A stretch of DNA of 46,152 bases from the IMG/VR virus record IMGVR_UViG_3300030104_005779, positions 1-46,152 of that record, one strand, 5' to 3'. Positions 13,421-27,964 of this stretch are shown piece after piece. The stretch comes from a virus. Position numbers and translations under genes: made by a program. The stretch's first letter is position 1; each line of letters starts with the position of its first letter. The notes under the pieces were generated by a model. That model worked only from the letters and a program-made list of their open reading frames with translations. It was not told the DNA's origin and did not search any database.

Positions 13421-15055
13421 TTATAATACCTCTTTGAAAGCAATATTACTTACATGTAAATTTAATCTTCCAGTTTCAGCATTATATATAGCTTGACCAC
13501 AATGACCAGTATCTCCAGTAAATCTACTTTTTAAAACAGCAAATTTAACTGCATTACGTTCTTGCTTTTCAGCTGCCATCATGTTTCTACTAAAGGCTAC
13601 AATATCAAAACTAATTTGTTTAATACTTCCAGATCCCTTTATATCATCTAATGATGCCATACGGCCTTCCTCAAATGATTTATTATCCCCATGACTTTTT
13701 CTTAAATGGGATATTAAAGTTAAATGTATATTATATCTTTTAACAATTTTTAATAATGAACTCATAACCTTATCAATTGCTTCATTACCTGATAAACCTT
13801 CTGAGCCTTCAGATACTGCAATTGTTATGTGATCTAAAATTAAATATTGACAGCCTAATGCAGCCAAATATTCAATCCTAGACAATAAAGAACTATCTTG
13901 AACAGATCCTTGATGATCTAATAATATTAATCTTTCATCACCAAATACTTTTTCAAAACCTTTCCTAGCTTCTTCTTCAGTACAATCTTCTGGTGTTCTA
14001 ATATTTTTATTTATAGACATACCAATTAATCTAGTAGCAGTGTCACCAATAGATTCTTCTAATGATATTAAACCTATTTTAGCATCAGATTGTTCTAATA
14101 AATTTAATATTGTTTCTTTAACAACAGTTGATTTACCTGAACCTGTACCAGATGTAAATAAAGTAATTTCACCTAATCTCATACCTAATAATTTATCATT
14201 TAAACCTTTTAAACAATCAGGATATGGAACAGATTTAGTATTAGATCTTTCTTTAAATGCTTGCCATATTTTTTCACCGGACACAAAATTATCTGGCTTA
14301 TATGATTTAGCCGACCAAACATCTTGTAAATATTGATCAATTAAACCTTTCTCTAGAGCCTCATTAGCATCTTTATAAACGCTATTTACAATATGTGCTT
14401 TCCCGGGCTTAATAATATGTGCAACATCTTTTGCCGCTTCAATACCATATTCATCATTATCAAATGCTAAAAATACTTTTTCGTATTTATTTACAAATTC
14501 TAAATTAGATGCAATATTTCTTCTAGCACTTTGGGCACCATTAACAATTGATACCACATCAAATTGTGCTTTAGCTTTTGTAAGCATTTCTAATAATGAT
14601 AAACAATCTATTTCACCTTCAGTAATAACTAAATTTTTTCTTTTACCACTATTACATTGGTTAAATAATTCAGGCACTTCAGCTTTACCAATAACTCTAA
14701 AATCTTTGGTAACAACTATTCTTTTCTTATATGCTTTAATTTTTTTATTTACTGTTATTGGATAATAATGACTTATAATATTTCTTTTATCATCATATTC
14801 AATTTTAACTCCAGCATTATATAAAACCTTTTTAGATATACCTCTAAATGTATCTATTGGTAATTGACTTATTTCATCTAAAGTTAATTGTGATTGTACA
14901 ATTTTAAATTCAATATCTACATCTTCTATACCAGATGCAGTACTTTTCTTACAACTGAAACAATATGTGGATCCATCAGAATAAACAGCATTTGCGTCTG
15001 ATGACCCACAAGATTCACAGCTTGTGTGTTTTATAAACGTTGTATTCTTTCCCAT
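13421..15055 (-). CDS. T7 gp4-like primase-helicase
   Basis: A 544-residue bifunctional replication protein. Residues 13-35 hold a zinc-binding set (C13, C16, C32, C35) for template recognition. A TOPRIM primase core follows (TEGEIDCLSL, later FDNDEYG). The C-terminal half is a RecA/DnaB-type helicase with Walker A TSGTGSGKST, a Walker B-like LILDH and a downstream SHLRK/GSGSIKQ block. It makes primers and unwinds DNA ahead of the polymerase. Start ATG has a good GAGAGG site. It overlaps the HNH-like gene upstream by 41 bp. The length matches T7 gp4. Confidence 0.92.
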   Translation of the reverse strand: MGKNTTFIKHTSCESCGSSDANAVYSDGSTYCFSCKKSTASGIEDVDIEFKIVQSQLTLDEISQLPIDTFRGISKKVLYNAGVKIEYDDKRNIISHYYPITVNKKIKAYKKRIVVTKDFRVIGKAEVPELFNQCNSGKRKNLVITEGEIDCLSLLEMLTKAKAQFDVVSIVNGAQSARRNIASNLEFVNKYEKVFLAFDNDEYGIEAAKDVAHIIKPGKAHIVNSVYKDANEALEKGLIDQYLQDVWSAKSYKPDNFVSGEKIWQAFKERSNTKSVPYPDCLKGLNDKLLGMRLGEITLFTSGTGSGKSTVVKETILNLLEQSDAKIGLISLEESIGDTATRLIGMSINKNIRTPEDCTEEEARKGFEKVFGDERLILLDHQGSVQDSSLLSRIEYLAALGCQYLILDHITIAVSEGSEGLSGNEAIDKVMSSLLKIVKRYNIHLTLISHLRKSHGDNKSFEEGRMASLDDIKGSGSIKQISFDIVAFSRNMMAAEKQERNAVKFAVLKSRFTGDTGHCGQAIYNAETGRLNLHVSNIAFKEVL

Positions 15056-15425
15056 ATATTTCCTCTCTTGTTATTTTATATCTTTTTGTAGCCCATTTAA
15101 CAAACCTTTTAATATCTCTACCAGTTGCAGAGGTCATCATAAGGTTTGCTATATTGGTTACAAATTCTACATTACCTTTTACATATCCTAACCTAGGATC
15201 TATTCTATCTAATGTTGGACTTAATTTACCTAAATTAATATTTGAAACTTTCATTGTGTACCCAAGAATTGGACATACTGAATTTTTAGGATAAATAGAT
15301 TCCAAATAATTAGATGTTAAATTAAAAGGTAAATTTTTTATTTTTGATCGTCTTTTAGAGGCTTTACAAGCAGTAACAGCAATACCCCTAATAGATTGAT
15401 TATACTTTTTTTGATTGAACGCCAT
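15015..15425 (-). CDS. HNH-like endonuclease
   Basis: A 136-residue basic protein. The N-terminal 30 residues are rich in Lys/Arg (DNA contact). The key segment is CPILGYTMKV, then SPTLDRIDPRLGYVKGNVEFVT and ANLMM, which follows the phage HNH pattern (D-R-I-D/N-x-x-x-G-Y-x-x-x-N-V). The second metal-binding Cys pair is missing. It may cut branched DNA (a role like T7 gp3) or be a homing-type nuclease. It overlaps both neighbours in a T7-like cluster, which favours a core role over a free-standing homing gene. Confidence 0.65.
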   Translation of the reverse strand: MAFNQKKYNQSIRGIAVTACKASKRRSKIKNLPFNLTSNYLESIYPKNSVCPILGYTMKVSNINLGKLSPTLDRIDPRLGYVKGNVEFVTNIANLMMTSATGRDIKRFVKWATKRYKITREEIYGKEYNVYKTHKL

Positions 15426-16146
15426 TTAAATAATTTCTCCAGTATTCTATTGACCATTTTGAATGATCTTCAAAGTCTTTAATAAGATATAACATTGTGC
15501 CCATTACATTTAATCTTGATAAAAAATCTTCTGGATAATGTTTTTTATAAGCTTTAATAACAGCTTCAAACTGTTCATTTAAAGTTTTATTTTTTAATAT
15601 CTTATTTGCTTTAACCGGACCAACACCTTCAATACCTGGAATATTATCTACAGCATCACCTGTTAATAATTGTTGATGGAAAAATTCTATGCCTTCAATT
15701 TTAGATACAGCTGATAAATTATTATATAATAAATTATAAAATAAACCACCAATAGTTTTCCAATCTTTATCTAAAGTTATAAGCATATATAATTGTCCAT
15801 TTTTAATATGCCTAAATGCTTCAACAGAGGCTGTATCATCAGCTTCATATTTAGGAACCATAGTAGGTTTATATTTTTTAATTATATATTCACGGCATTC
15901 TAAATAATTTTCTGGTTTTTCTCTTCTTTTACCTTTATATTTTAAAAAATCTTGTTTTATTTCTTTTCTAAAATTACCACCGCCTGAAATATGTAAACTA
16001 TATTCATCACAAGCAGTATTTTCTTTTACTTCATTATATATTTCATCAAATGTCTTTTTTACATCTAAATTTTCCTTTATGGATTTATTACAGGCTCTAT
16101 ATATTAATACATCACCATCAACAATACCAATTATTTTATTACTCAT
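15400..16146 (-). CDS. 5'-3' exonuclease (T7 gp6-like, FEN family)
   Basis: A 248-residue FEN-type nuclease. Asp residues in the pattern are visible: VDGDVL near the N-terminus, YEADDT, TLDKDWK, then GDAVDNIPGIEGVGPVKANKIL, which joins the last metal ligands to the helix-hairpin-helix DNA-binding motif. It would remove RNA primers and degrade host DNA, as T7 gp6 does. AAAGG lies before ATG. It overlaps the HNH-like gene downstream and follows the cupin gene. Confidence 0.9.
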   Translation of the reverse strand: MSNKIIGIVDGDVLIYRACNKSIKENLDVKKTFDEIYNEVKENTACDEYSLHISGGGNFRKEIKQDFLKYKGKRREKPENYLECREYIIKKYKPTMVPKYEADDTASVEAFRHIKNGQLYMLITLDKDWKTIGGLFYNLLYNNLSAVSKIEGIEFFHQQLLTGDAVDNIPGIEGVGPVKANKILKNKTLNEQFEAVIKAYKKHYPEDFLSRLNVMGTMLYLIKDFEDHSKWSIEYWRNYLNGVQSKKV

Positions 16147-23118: not shown

Positions 23119-23233
23119 AATAATAATAATATTTTTATTAGTAGCCTCATGTAGTGCTATTAATAAATTTGATGTAAATCCGTGGACAACAATTGTAAAA
23201 TACATAGTAAAAGAGGAAAATAAAAATGAATAA
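23105..23233 (+). CDS. Small lipoprotein
   Basis: 42 residues with a hydrophobic start (IIIIFLLVAS) and Cys16 in a lipobox-like LVASC, followed by a short tail with an NPW motif. It overlaps the gene before (13 bp) and the next lipoprotein start (7 bp). Like Rz1-type or entry-related lipoproteins of phages; role unknown. Confidence 0.55.
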   Translation: MFIGRIIIIFLLVASCSAINKFDVNPWTTIVKYIVKEENKNE

Positions 23234-23501
23234 AATAATGTTAATAACAGTATTTATTTTATTATTACAAGGTTGTGCTAAATATGAACCAGTTATTGAT
23301 ACAAAAGGTAAATCAAAATTTGAAAATTCTAACGCAGAAGAAATTTCAGATGATCTTTTACATTGTAAACATTTAGCTGAAGAAAATAGTACAATGGGTG
23401 GTAATATTGTTTATTGGCTTTTAAGCCCAATGGCTCAAAATCAATATGCTGTTATATATAAAAAATGTATGGAAGGTCGAAACCATCAAGTGTTAAATTA
23501 A
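23226..23501 (+). CDS. Predicted lipoprotein
   Basis: 91 residues. A signal peptide (about 1-16) ends in LLLQGC with Cys17 as the lipid site. The mature part has two more cysteines (C46, C81 roughly) that could pair in the periplasm. Together with the previous small lipoprotein it may block superinfection or help lysis. No recognised family. Confidence 0.65.
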   Translation: MNKIMLITVFILLLQGCAKYEPVIDTKGKSKFENSNAEEISDDLLHCKHLAEENSTMGGNIVYWLLSPMAQNQYAVIYKKCMEGRNHQVLN

Positions 23502-23516
23502 TAATAGGAGAATAAA

Positions 23517-24776
23517 ATGACAATACTAAAAAGTAAAGTTCAAAGAGATGCTATTACTGACAGAATTAGTTCTGCTAGTGATTTTGCTTGGACAGGAGAA
23601 AATAGTTTTACTGTTCCAAGTTTTGATATGCCAAAAGACTTTGGTATAGGATTAATAGTTGGACCAAGCGGTTCAGGTAAAAGTTCTATATTAAAAACGC
23701 TAGGATTACATGAAGAGGAATATATATGGGATCCCAATAAAGCGGTTGCATCACATTTTTCATCTTATGATGAAGCAAGTGAAAAGTTATCAGCAGTTGC
23801 TTTAAATAGCATACCTGATCAACTTAAGCCATATCAAACATTATCAACCGGTCAAAAATTTAGAGCACAAATGGCTATGGCTCTTAAATCTGGAGCAGTG
23901 GTAGATGAATTTACTTCTGTTATAGATAGAAATGTGGCTAAGGCATTATCTAATAGCATAAGAAAATATGTTGATAGAAAAGGCTTAAAAAATATCGTAT
24001 TGGTTGGATGCCATTATGACGTTATTGAGTGGTTAAGACCGGATTGGATATTTGATACCAAAACTGGAGTCTTAAGCACGGAAAGGTTAGCCAGGCGACC
24101 AAGCATCACTTTGGAAATTAGAAAAGCCGACAAAAGTGCTTGGAGCGTATTTAAACAGCATCACTATTTAACTGCTGAACTTCCTAGTAATACTCCACAT
24201 TGTTATTTATATTACTGGAATAATGCATTAGTAGGTTATGGCTCTTTAAATGCTTTTCCTCATCCAAAGTTAAAAGCTTGTTATAATATTGGAAGGGTGG
24301 TTGTGCTACCTGACTTTCAAGGATTAGGTATAGGTTATCCTATATTTAAAAACTTGGCTCAGATTGCAACACATAATTTCAATCATACAACAGGTTATTA
24401 TGGAAGATGTAAAGTTGTAACGGCTATTCCAGCATTACAAAATAAAATGAACAATGATAGGGATTGGCAATTTATAAAAGGATCTGATGTAAGAAAACCT
24501 CAGAAACCTAATGACAATCCTAGAAAATTTGGTGGATATGATGAAACATATTTCAAAAAACATGAAAATCGTATTACCAAAGCATTTCATTATGTTGGAG
24601 TTAAAGGCTTTGATTTAGAGGATCCTAATTTAGTTATTGATAATATATTAGAAACTAAAAGCTGGGTTGATGATAAAAACAGAGCACAAAATAAACTAAC
24701 AGGCAATATAATAAAAGATTTCAGACCAACCATAGCAGGTGAAACTGATTATCAATTTATTATGGAAAGAAACTAA
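23517..24776 (+). CDS. ABC-type ATPase fused to GNAT acetyltransferase (Mom-like candidate)
   Basis: A 419-residue two-domain protein (COG2401-like). The N-terminal half is an ABC ATPase: Walker A GPSGSGKSS at 49-57, signature LSTGQ at 109-113, Walker B with D130-E131 and a switch His (H166 in VGCHYDV). It has no membrane part. The C-terminal half (about 195-340) is GNAT-like: FKQHHYLTAELP, LVGYGSLNAF, NIGRVVVLPDFQGLGIGYPIFK and RCKVVTAIPALQ, which has the shape of phage Mu Mom-type enzymes. Mom modifies adenine in DNA to evade restriction, so a DNA or RNA modification role is possible. Strong AGGAG site. Confidence 0.7.
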   Translation: MTILKSKVQRDAITDRISSASDFAWTGENSFTVPSFDMPKDFGIGLIVGPSGSGKSSILKTLGLHEEEYIWDPNKAVASHFSSYDEASEKLSAVALNSIPDQLKPYQTLSTGQKFRAQMAMALKSGAVVDEFTSVIDRNVAKALSNSIRKYVDRKGLKNIVLVGCHYDVIEWLRPDWIFDTKTGVLSTERLARRPSITLEIRKADKSAWSVFKQHHYLTAELPSNTPHCYLYYWNNALVGYGSLNAFPHPKLKACYNIGRVVVLPDFQGLGIGYPIFKNLAQIATHNFNHTTGYYGRCKVVTAIPALQNKMNNDRDWQFIKGSDVRKPQKPNDNPRKFGGYDETYFKKHENRITKAFHYVGVKGFDLEDPNLVIDNILETKSWVDDKNRAQNKLTGNIIKDFRPTIAGETDYQFIMERN

Positions 24777-25015
24777 TGATAGAAATACCAACTTGGTTAT
24801 TATTTGTTTTAGTTTTTTCAATTATAGTTCTATTTGTCTTTATTCAAGATTTAAATATAAAGGCAAATAGGCTAAAATTTGATCAAATACAAATAGGAAT
24901 TATTCTTAACAAAAGTTTTGAAGATATAACTAATGATGTGAATAATTTAAATAAAGGTATTGATCAGATGGACCAAAAATATGAAAAAATCATGTCTAAA
25001 ATTAATAGTAGATAA
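24776..25015 (+). CDS. Membrane-anchored coiled-coil protein
   Basis: 79 residues: a hydrophobic helix at about 7-25 (WLLFVLVFSIIVLFVFI), then a long charged helix (30-79) suited to a coiled coil. This layout resembles Rz-like inner-membrane spanins, but it lacks a lysis neighbourhood. It starts in the stop of the ABC-GNAT gene. Function unknown. Confidence 0.65.
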   Translation: MIEIPTWLLFVLVFSIIVLFVFIQDLNIKANRLKFDQIQIGIILNKSFEDITNDVNNLNKGIDQMDQKYEKIMSKINSR

Positions 25016-27724: not shown

Positions 27725-27964
27725 ATTGTTATAATAAGAAGTAATAAACCACAAAAACGAGGCAATTTCTTTGTTATTGTAAAAGATAATAATATTGAAA
27801 AAGCTATTCGTAAGATGAAAAACAAATCTAGCAAATTAGGTATATTAAAAACATACCGTGAAAGGCAAAGATATGAAAAACCATCTGATAAAAAAGTAAG
27901 AAAAGCCAAAGAAGGTAGAATAAGCCTTTTAAAAGCTAAAATAAAAAGGGAAAAGAACTTATAA
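27725..27964 (+). CDS. rpsU: Ribosomal protein bS21 homologue with non-canonical start
   Basis: The frame encodes ...FFVIVKDNNIEKAIRKMKN, then LKTYRERQRYEKPSDKKV and a basic helix, matching bacterial bS21 (core VxENEPFDVALRRFKR, then EFYEKPTTERKR). It would enter host ribosomes near the anti-Shine-Dalgarno region and may bias them to phage messages. No ATG, GTG or TTG is in frame between the stop at 27704-27706 and the protein core. GAGG lies five bases before ATT (27725), and ATA at 27731 is another choice. AUU starts are known for infC, where they allow self-regulation. Start is uncertain; the coding region is not. Confidence 0.8.
   Translation: MVIIRSNKPQKRGNFFVIVKDNNIEKAIRKMKNKSSKLGILKTYRERQRYEKPSDKKVRKAKEGRISLLKAKIKREKNL

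What the first reader, a model, noticed from the sequence alone, without database searches (positions are those of the whole stretch)
23517..24776. ABC ATPase-GNAT fusion resembling Mom-type DNA modification
Intact ABC ATPase motifs (Walker A, LSTGQ, Walker B with DE, switch His) are fused to an acetyltransferase fold of the COG2401 kind with a HHYL block and RVVVLPDFQGLGIG. Mu Mom is a GNAT-like enzyme that modifies adenine in phage DNA. A single-chain, ATP-driven version in the early-middle genes would be a candidate anti-restriction system, or could modify RNA or protein.
Basis: partly seen in the sequence, partly recalled or inferred. Interest (0 to 1): 0.75.

Follow-up and report, generated by a model that had tools for sequence, protein, structure and literature searches.

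The report
Phage ATPase–acyltransferase, predicted DNA modifier
A phage related to marine Pelagibacter phages carries one protein made of an ATP-driven domain joined to an acyl-transferring domain; its relatives sit where other phages keep known DNA-modifying enzymes, so it most likely decorates the phage's DNA, a role that was already predicted for this family but that no study I found has tested.

Summary
ORF 23517-24776 (419 aa) joins an intact ABC ATPase domain to a GNAT acyltransferase domain; both folds are predicted with fair confidence, and the gene is under purifying selection. It belongs to a large, well-defined family (PHROG 11143) in phages and prophages. It is not a Mom family member (no match to the Pfam Mom model). 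New evidence here supports a Mom-like role. In near-identical Porphyromonas phages Mom and ABC-GNAT swap in one slot, and in Enterococcus phages they occupy the same position. The Mom regulator Com precedes ABC-GNAT in two loci. Most ABC-GNAT genes overlap a ParB-domain gene whose family otherwise pairs with N6/N4 and C5 methylases, Mom and a DNA glycosyltransferase. A 40-residue tag marks the ABC-GNAT partners. The window protein belongs to a clade that lacks ParB and tag, and was inserted cleanly upstream of the phage RNA polymerase. Against a restriction role: SAR11 hosts are reported to lack restriction-modification systems. Substrate and chemistry are untested.

The parts
23517..24776 (+). 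ABC ATPase-GNAT fusion gene, 419 aa (PHROG 11143)
   Evidence: ORF; PHROG 11143 E=3e-95; purifying selection
23517..24086 (+). ABC ATPase domain (aa 1-190)
   Evidence: AlphaFold2 model, pLDDT mostly 80-95 in this part; VIA-align Z 13.7, rmsd 3.6, 170 aligned to MJ0796 (1l2t)
23661..23684 (+). Walker A GPSGSGKS
   Evidence: sequence; G49, G54 and K55 invariant in 116 rows
23841..23855 (+). ABC signature LSTGQ
   Evidence: sequence; S110 and G112 invariant
23895..23930 (+). Walker B with catalytic Glu (AVVDE) and D-loop (SVIDR)
   Evidence: D130, E131, S134, D137, R138 invariant
24009..24047 (+). switch (H-loop) block CHYDVIEWLRPDW
   Evidence: H166 and D168 invariant; W172, P175 and W177 nearly so
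24090..24605 (+). GNAT acyltransferase domain (aa 192-363)
   Evidence: PF00583 E=4e-8; domain model pLDDT 84.6; VIA-align Z 12.3, rmsd 3.7, 136 aligned to Naa50 (6yzz)
24159..24170 (+). HHYL block; the second His and the Tyr align with the HY of Mom
   Evidence: Y217 invariant, H216 in 110 of 116, L218 in 114 of 116; hhalign with Mom
24294..24335 (+). GNAT motif A RVVVLPDFQGLGIG (acyl-CoA pyrophosphate loop, with invariant R260)
   Evidence: R260, P265 and G269 invariant
24606..24773 (+). C-terminal tail (aa 364-419), low model confidence, not family-wide
   Evidence: pLDDT about 30; mostly gaps in the family alignment
23226..23501 (+). landmark: lipoprotein-like ORF on the left of the insertion point
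   Evidence: in sister phages it ends about 20 bases from the next landmark, with no ABC-GNAT between
24776..25015 (+). landmark: small ORF with a hydrophobic N-terminus on the right of the insertion point, followed by the RNA polymerase gene
   Evidence: start overlaps the ABC-GNAT stop

Best explanation
The gene encodes a soluble ABC ATPase-GNAT enzyme that modifies the phage's own DNA. Proposed steps: two ABC domains close on ATP as a dimer on DNA (inferred from intact Walker A, signature, D-loop and H-loop). The ATPase cycle places or releases the enzyme on duplex DNA (inferred). The GNAT domain then transfers an acyl group from acyl-CoA (motif A shown, cofactor inferred) to a base amino group, with the invariant Tyr of the HY block and Arg260 near the catalytic site (inferred). 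In most of the family a ParB-domain protein with a 40-residue C-terminal tag is encoded in an overlapping gene just upstream (shown) and is probably a partner (inferred); the window protein belongs to a clade without it. The modification would protect phage DNA from nucleases: host defences, or the phage's own host-degrading nucleases (inferred).
For: Slot swap: Porphyromonas phages 006a/007a against 015a share about 89-90% identical left flanks (3.1 kb for 007a) and an 84% identical right end, but one holds Mom and the others tag ORF + ABC-GNAT + formyltransferase. Enterococcus PMBT2 has polymerase-Mom-glutaredoxin where 9184 has polymerase-ABC-GNAT-glutaredoxin homologue. A Com-like zinc ribbon precedes ABC-GNAT in Pseudomonas phage Komp_PAO1_1 and in a Rhizobium locus. 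ParB-type gene directly upstream in 99 of 141 loci, mostly overlapping by 19-22 nt, and fused in one more. Of 80 loci found by that ParB, 53 carry N6_N4_Mtase (52 fused, 1 adjacent), 8 Mom, 4 ABC-GNAT, 2 C5 methylase, 2 TAGT. In the window's clade an N6/N4 methylase gene overlaps the ABC-GNAT gene (L034). Prior prediction: PMC7824862.
Against: No chemistry, substrate or modified base is shown. The window's own clade (12 rows, 98% support) has no ParB, and ParB and tag are absent from the window, so for this gene the partner argument holds only by homology. The GNAT fold is closest to N-terminal, polyamine and small-molecule acetyltransferases, and Pfam Mom does not match. SAR11 hosts are reported to lack restriction-modification, and the related pelagiphage Kolga, isolated on Pelagibacter, has no detectable homologue. 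Aeromonas phage PX29 carries both Mom and ABC-GNAT, so they are not simple equivalents.
Confidence: 0.62

Rival explanations
1. Host-takeover protein acetyltransferase: the GNAT domain acetylates a host protein such as RNA polymerase (as reported for phiKMV Rac), and the ABC domain controls its activity. The position just upstream of the phage's own RNA polymerase would fit a switch from host to phage transcription.
For: The gene sits between early-type small ORFs and the single-subunit RNA polymerase. The nearest GNAT folds include N-terminal protein acetyltransferases such as Naa50 and RimI. Rac is a precedent (PMC7824862).
Against: Relatives occur in many phages at other places (before terminase, at the Mom slot, after DNA polymerase) and keep company with DNA modifiers, not RNA polymerases.
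Confidence: 0.12
2. ParB/ABC DNA-scanning or packaging accessory: the ATPase moves on or marks phage DNA next to terminase, and the GNAT domain acetylates a DNA-bound protein, for example a terminase subunit.
For: ABC-GNAT lies just before terminase genes in many (pro)phages; ParB-fold and ABC proteins handle DNA.
Against: Not next to terminase in Mu-like, Enterococcus and T4-like carriers. ParB-methylase fusions share the same ParB family, which points to base modification.
Confidence: 0.1
3. RNA modifier, for example acylation of a tRNA or mRNA base, with the ABC domain as an RNA remodeller.
For: GNAT enzymes acetylate RNA bases in other systems (own knowledge); EttA (ABC-F) is among the best sequence matches of the ATPase part, though weakly.
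Against: No RNA-related neighbours were found, whereas several kinds of DNA-base modifiers share the ParB partner.
Confidence: 0.07
4. Small-molecule or antibiotic acetyltransferase carried as a cargo gene.
For: The fold is close to SpeG and PA4794; the gene is a clean accessory insertion.
Against: A conserved fusion to a full ABC ATPase, the overlapping ParB gene, and the Mom and Com context have no reason in this model.
Confidence: 0.05

Closest known systems
ABC ATPase-GNAT predicted DNA modification system (Iyer et al. 2013, restated in PMC7824862 for Tenacibaculum phage pT24)
   Same: Same two-domain architecture; the pT24 protein is homologous (36% identity over 85% of the window protein).
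   Different: A published prediction with no test found here. The window gene is a new copy in a phage related to pelagiphages, in a clade without the ParB partner.
Phage Mu Mom (PF25680; PDB 8bv8, 'methylcarbamoylase mom')
   Same: GNAT superfamily; HY block after helix 1 and an Arg on a later strand align; interchangeable genomic slot and shared ParB and Com neighbours.
   Different: No Pfam Mom match; keeps a canonical GNAT motif A (QGLGIG) where Mu Mom has PRNSES at the aligned position; fused to an ABC ATPase.
ParB-N6_N4 DNA methylases of phages (ParB-methylase fusions, PMC12704722)
   Same: The ParB family that partners ABC-GNAT is fused to these methylases in 52 of 80 loci.
   Different: The catalytic module is a GNAT with ABC ATPase instead of a methylase; the ABC-GNAT partners carry an extra 40-residue tag.
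phiKMV Rac acetyltransferase
   Same: Phage GNAT.
   Different: Acts on RNA polymerase alpha according to PMC7824862; described there as a GNAT, with no ABC domain mentioned.

Membership tests
ABC-GNAT family (PHROG 11143) | Full-length profile match covering both domains | tested here: met
   E=3e-95, residues 4-363, profile 5-352 of 357
ABC-GNAT family (PHROG 11143) | Complete ABC motif set and GNAT motif A | tested here: met
   Invariant columns over 116 rows
ABC-GNAT family (PHROG 11143) | Upstream ParB-domain partner with C-terminal tag (typical, not universal, so not defining) | tested here: not met
   No ParB or tag ORF anywhere in the window; the sister members of its clade lack ParB too
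Mom (PF25680) | Match to the Mom profile | tested here: not met
   No hit at E<=1, while Mu Mom hits at 2e-75
Mom (PF25680) | HY block and ELNR-type Arg | tested here: inconclusive
   Aligned by hhalign with the 49-row set (Prob 58); with the broader 116-row set only the HY block region aligns (Prob 10), column-shuffled Mom at most 0.4
Mom (PF25680) | Fold similarity to the solved Mom structure 8bv8 | tested here: inconclusive
   8bv8 exists; it is not among the 50 listed matches of the GNAT model, which excludes nothing
Mom (PF25680) | Modified adenine in DNA | not testable with these tools
   needs LC-MS or nanopore data
COG2401 | Membership in the COG | not tested
GNAT superfamily | Profile and fold match | tested here: met
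   PF00583 above cut-off; Z about 12, rmsd 3.5-3.7, 128-139 residues aligned
ABC ATPase superfamily | Nucleotide-binding-domain fold and motifs | tested here: met
   Z 13.7, rmsd 3.6, 170 aligned to MJ0796; PF00005 slightly under its cut-off

The most novel reading that the evidence does not exclude
ABC-GNAT enzymes are a separate, ATP-gated class of DNA base acylators that replaces Mom. ParB proteins act as exchangeable DNA adaptors for many base-modifying modules and dock to ABC-GNAT through the 40-residue tag, and in one clade a formyltransferase further elaborates the adduct. The window's clade is an adaptor-free version that modifies DNA without ParB, in phages whose hosts lack known restriction systems, so its target defence would be of an unknown kind.
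Probability: 0.3. Interest if true: 0.8.

Novelty: new member of a known kind. Interest (0 to 1): 0.52.

Why it matters
The library searched here held a prediction but no test of the ABC-GNAT family. The swap with Mom in near-identical phages, the Com and ParB links and several cultured carriers turn that prediction into a direct experiment. If true, phage DNA carries an acyl modification made by an ATP-dependent enzyme, and ParB proteins are general partners of DNA modifiers.

Tried and rejected
Mom family membership: no Pfam Mom hit. Defence-system reading: only weak Walker-A-type PADLOC hits (mad3 6e-10, best stretch 26-62). Transporter reading (many annotations say 'ABC transporter'): no membrane-domain partner seen beside the gene, and it is fused to GNAT. 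A ParB gene in the window: none. GANTC and 4-base palindrome counts as a trace of restriction pressure: mild GANTC deficit (51 against about 93 by a crude expectation), not interpretable. Promoter scan: no excess over shuffles. A swap in relatives of Pseudomonas Komp_PAO1_1: no other relative in the collection. A broad ParB alignment was too divergent to scan with; a closer subset worked. Foldseek and VIA listings of the GNAT model do not show Mom, which excludes nothing. The 2013 source paper is not held, so how far it already described ParB, Com or formyltransferase links is unknown.

Full report
Observation. Pfam finds GNAT (PF00583, E=4e-8) and weaker ABC/AAA matches at the N-terminus; PHROG 11143, function unknown, matches almost the whole protein (E=3e-95). 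An AlphaFold2 model from 49 relatives gives a well-predicted ABC domain (aa 1-190) and GNAT domain (192-363), and a low-confidence tail (364-419). The ABC part aligns to MJ0796 (Z 13.7, rmsd 3.6, 170 residues); the GNAT part, folded alone (pLDDT 84.6), aligns to Naa50, a Bacillus IAA acetyltransferase and RimI (Z about 12, rmsd 3.5-3.7). The gene is under purifying selection (dN/dS 0.08-0.18 for close relatives).

The phage. The window is a 46,152-base virus record. It has a T7-like primase-helicase, DNA polymerase, single-subunit RNA polymerase, terminase and ribonucleotide reductase. Its RNA polymerase is 70% identical to that of Pelagibacter phages Kolga and Aegir. A 97% match to the ABC-GNAT protein lies in a contig binned into a Pelagibacter MAG. 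Host assignment is therefore inferred, not shown.

A clean insertion. In related contigs with RNA polymerase at least 83% identical and the upstream region covered, ABC-GNAT sits between a lipoprotein-like ORF (where that is detectable) and a small ORF before the RNA polymerase. In sister phages (RNA polymerase 67-73%) the small ORF is kept, the lipoprotein-like ORF, where found, ends about 20 bases before it, and ABC-GNAT is absent. One contig (L216) has a 64% allele next to a 90% RNA polymerase. So it is an accessory gene, gained or lost as a unit.

The family. Relatives appear in 77 phage records of 50,697 (the weakest match the ATPase part only), in at least 97 IMG/VR stretches and 415 stretches of bacterial and archaeal genome contigs, where a terminase often lies just downstream, so many are prophages. 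In Firmicutes phages and phage-plasmids the ATPase and the GNAT (or another small protein) are separate adjacent genes. Invariant residues over 116 divergent rows include the ABC motifs, Y217 of the HYL block, R260, the GNAT loop and W317.

Link 1, same slot as Mom. Porphyromonas phages 006a and 007a (ABC-GNAT) and 015a (Mom) are about 89-90% identical up to the end of the last tail gene for 007a (006a diverges to 73% in its last part) and 84% identical in the last 94 bases; between these, Mom alternates with a small ORF, ABC-GNAT and a formyltransferase. Enterococcus PMBT2 has polymerase-Mom-glutaredoxin; 9184 has polymerase-ABC-GNAT-glutaredoxin homologue, with 52-57% identical flanking proteins.

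Link 2, Com. A gene related to Com, which the Mu record annotates as the translational regulator of Mom, lies upstream of ABC-GNAT in the Mu-like Pseudomonas phage Komp_PAO1_1 (one PF10122 hit at 9e-21 in the neighbour set, most likely this one; Mu Com phmmer 2e-5) and in a Rhizobium locus.

Link 3, ParB. In 99 of 141 loci a ParB-type gene lies directly upstream, most often overlapping by 19 or 22 nt; in one Gemmataceae locus it is fused. At least one of the 99 (L007) is only the free-standing tag described below, not a whole ParB. I then searched viral contigs with this ParB family without reference to its neighbours. Of the best 80 loci, 53 carry an N6_N4 methylase module (52 fused, 1 adjacent), 8 have Mom next door, 4 ABC-GNAT, 2 a C5 cytosine methylase and 2 a TET-associated glycosyltransferase. 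The same ParB family precedes Mom in Microbacterium phage Pickles13 (E=3e-20). So 65 of 80 partners are other DNA-base modifiers, which is the company ABC-GNAT keeps. The seeds came from ABC-GNAT loci, so the ABC-GNAT share is not an unbiased frequency. About 30% of phage proteins with this fold were reported as multidomain fusions, frequently with DNA methyltransferase domains (PMC12704722).

A tag. The last 40 residues of ParB are conserved in ABC-GNAT loci, found in the 4 ABC-GNAT loci of the ParB scan and in none of the other 76, and occur as a free 42-62 residue ORF in the formyltransferase clade, one of them annotated 'acr candidate'. I infer a docking element for ABC-GNAT.

What the window lacks. 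The window protein falls in a 12-row clade (98% support) in which no member has ParB; neither ParB nor tag occurs in the window. For this gene the DNA-modification reading therefore rests on homology, and on the N6/N4 methylase gene that overlaps the ABC-GNAT gene in L034, a near relative of clade member L033, and a probable N6 methylase near the Aeromonas copy.

Mom or not. The GNAT domain is not Mom by profile. Profile-profile comparison aligns helix 1, the HY block and, with the narrower alignment, the Arg strand with Mom (Prob 58; 10 with the broader set; at most 0.4 for column-shuffled Mom; 0.2 for the ABC domain). From memory, the corresponding His and Arg of Mu Mom are reported as important; I could not verify this here. 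The prediction that ABC-GNAT acylates a DNA base was published before (PMC7824862); I found no experimental test in the held papers.

Tension. SAR11 genomes are reported to have no restriction-modification systems (PMC9516812), so protection against a classical restriction enzyme may not be what selects for this gene in a pelagiphage. Other possible reasons are other host defences or the phage's own nucleases (an endonuclease VII/HNH-like protein and an exonuclease are encoded at 15015-16146); both are guesses.

Verdict. Observation confirmed; interpretation partly supported and already published as a prediction; a new member of a known kind, with added contextual evidence and a cheap decisive experiment.

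Noticed in passing
L250 4498-5355 (Enterococcus phage 9184): The ABC-GNAT genes sit inside the DNA polymerase gene: the polymerase ORF stops early (matches residues 1-671 of the PMBT2 polymerase) and the last 80 residues (684-763) are fused behind the GNAT ORF.
   Followed up: partly
L007, L060, L062, L064, L079-L081, L083, L084, L086, L123, L124, L185, L186: A formyltransferase-family gene follows ABC-GNAT directly in one clade (9 tree rows, a single change on the tree, full support); it may further modify the adduct.
   Followed up: partly
L123 3780-3908, L124 3747-3875, L007 5774-5923, L186 4681-4869: Free-standing 42-62 residue ORFs equal to the C-terminal tag of the ParB partner; the one in L123 is annotated 'acr candidate protein' in its record.
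   Followed up: partly
L242 and hit H3 (Aeromonas phage PX29, GU396103.1 36066-36950 and 53050-54273): PX29 carries both a Mom homologue and an ABC-GNAT gene, about 16 kb apart.
   Followed up: no
window 27815-27964: 49-residue ORF behind the RNA polymerase that by eye resembles ribosomal protein S21, which is annotated at the equivalent place in pelagiphage Kolga.
   Followed up: no
L252, L330, L325 (viral contigs): The ParB family also precedes a histidine phosphatase-cytidylyltransferase fusion, a small P-loop protein and a protein without a Pfam match: possible further DNA hypermodification genes.
   Followed up: no
L128 (NZIO01000026.1): A 42-kb contig very close to this phage is binned into a 'Candidatus Pelagibacter' MAG.
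   Followed up: no
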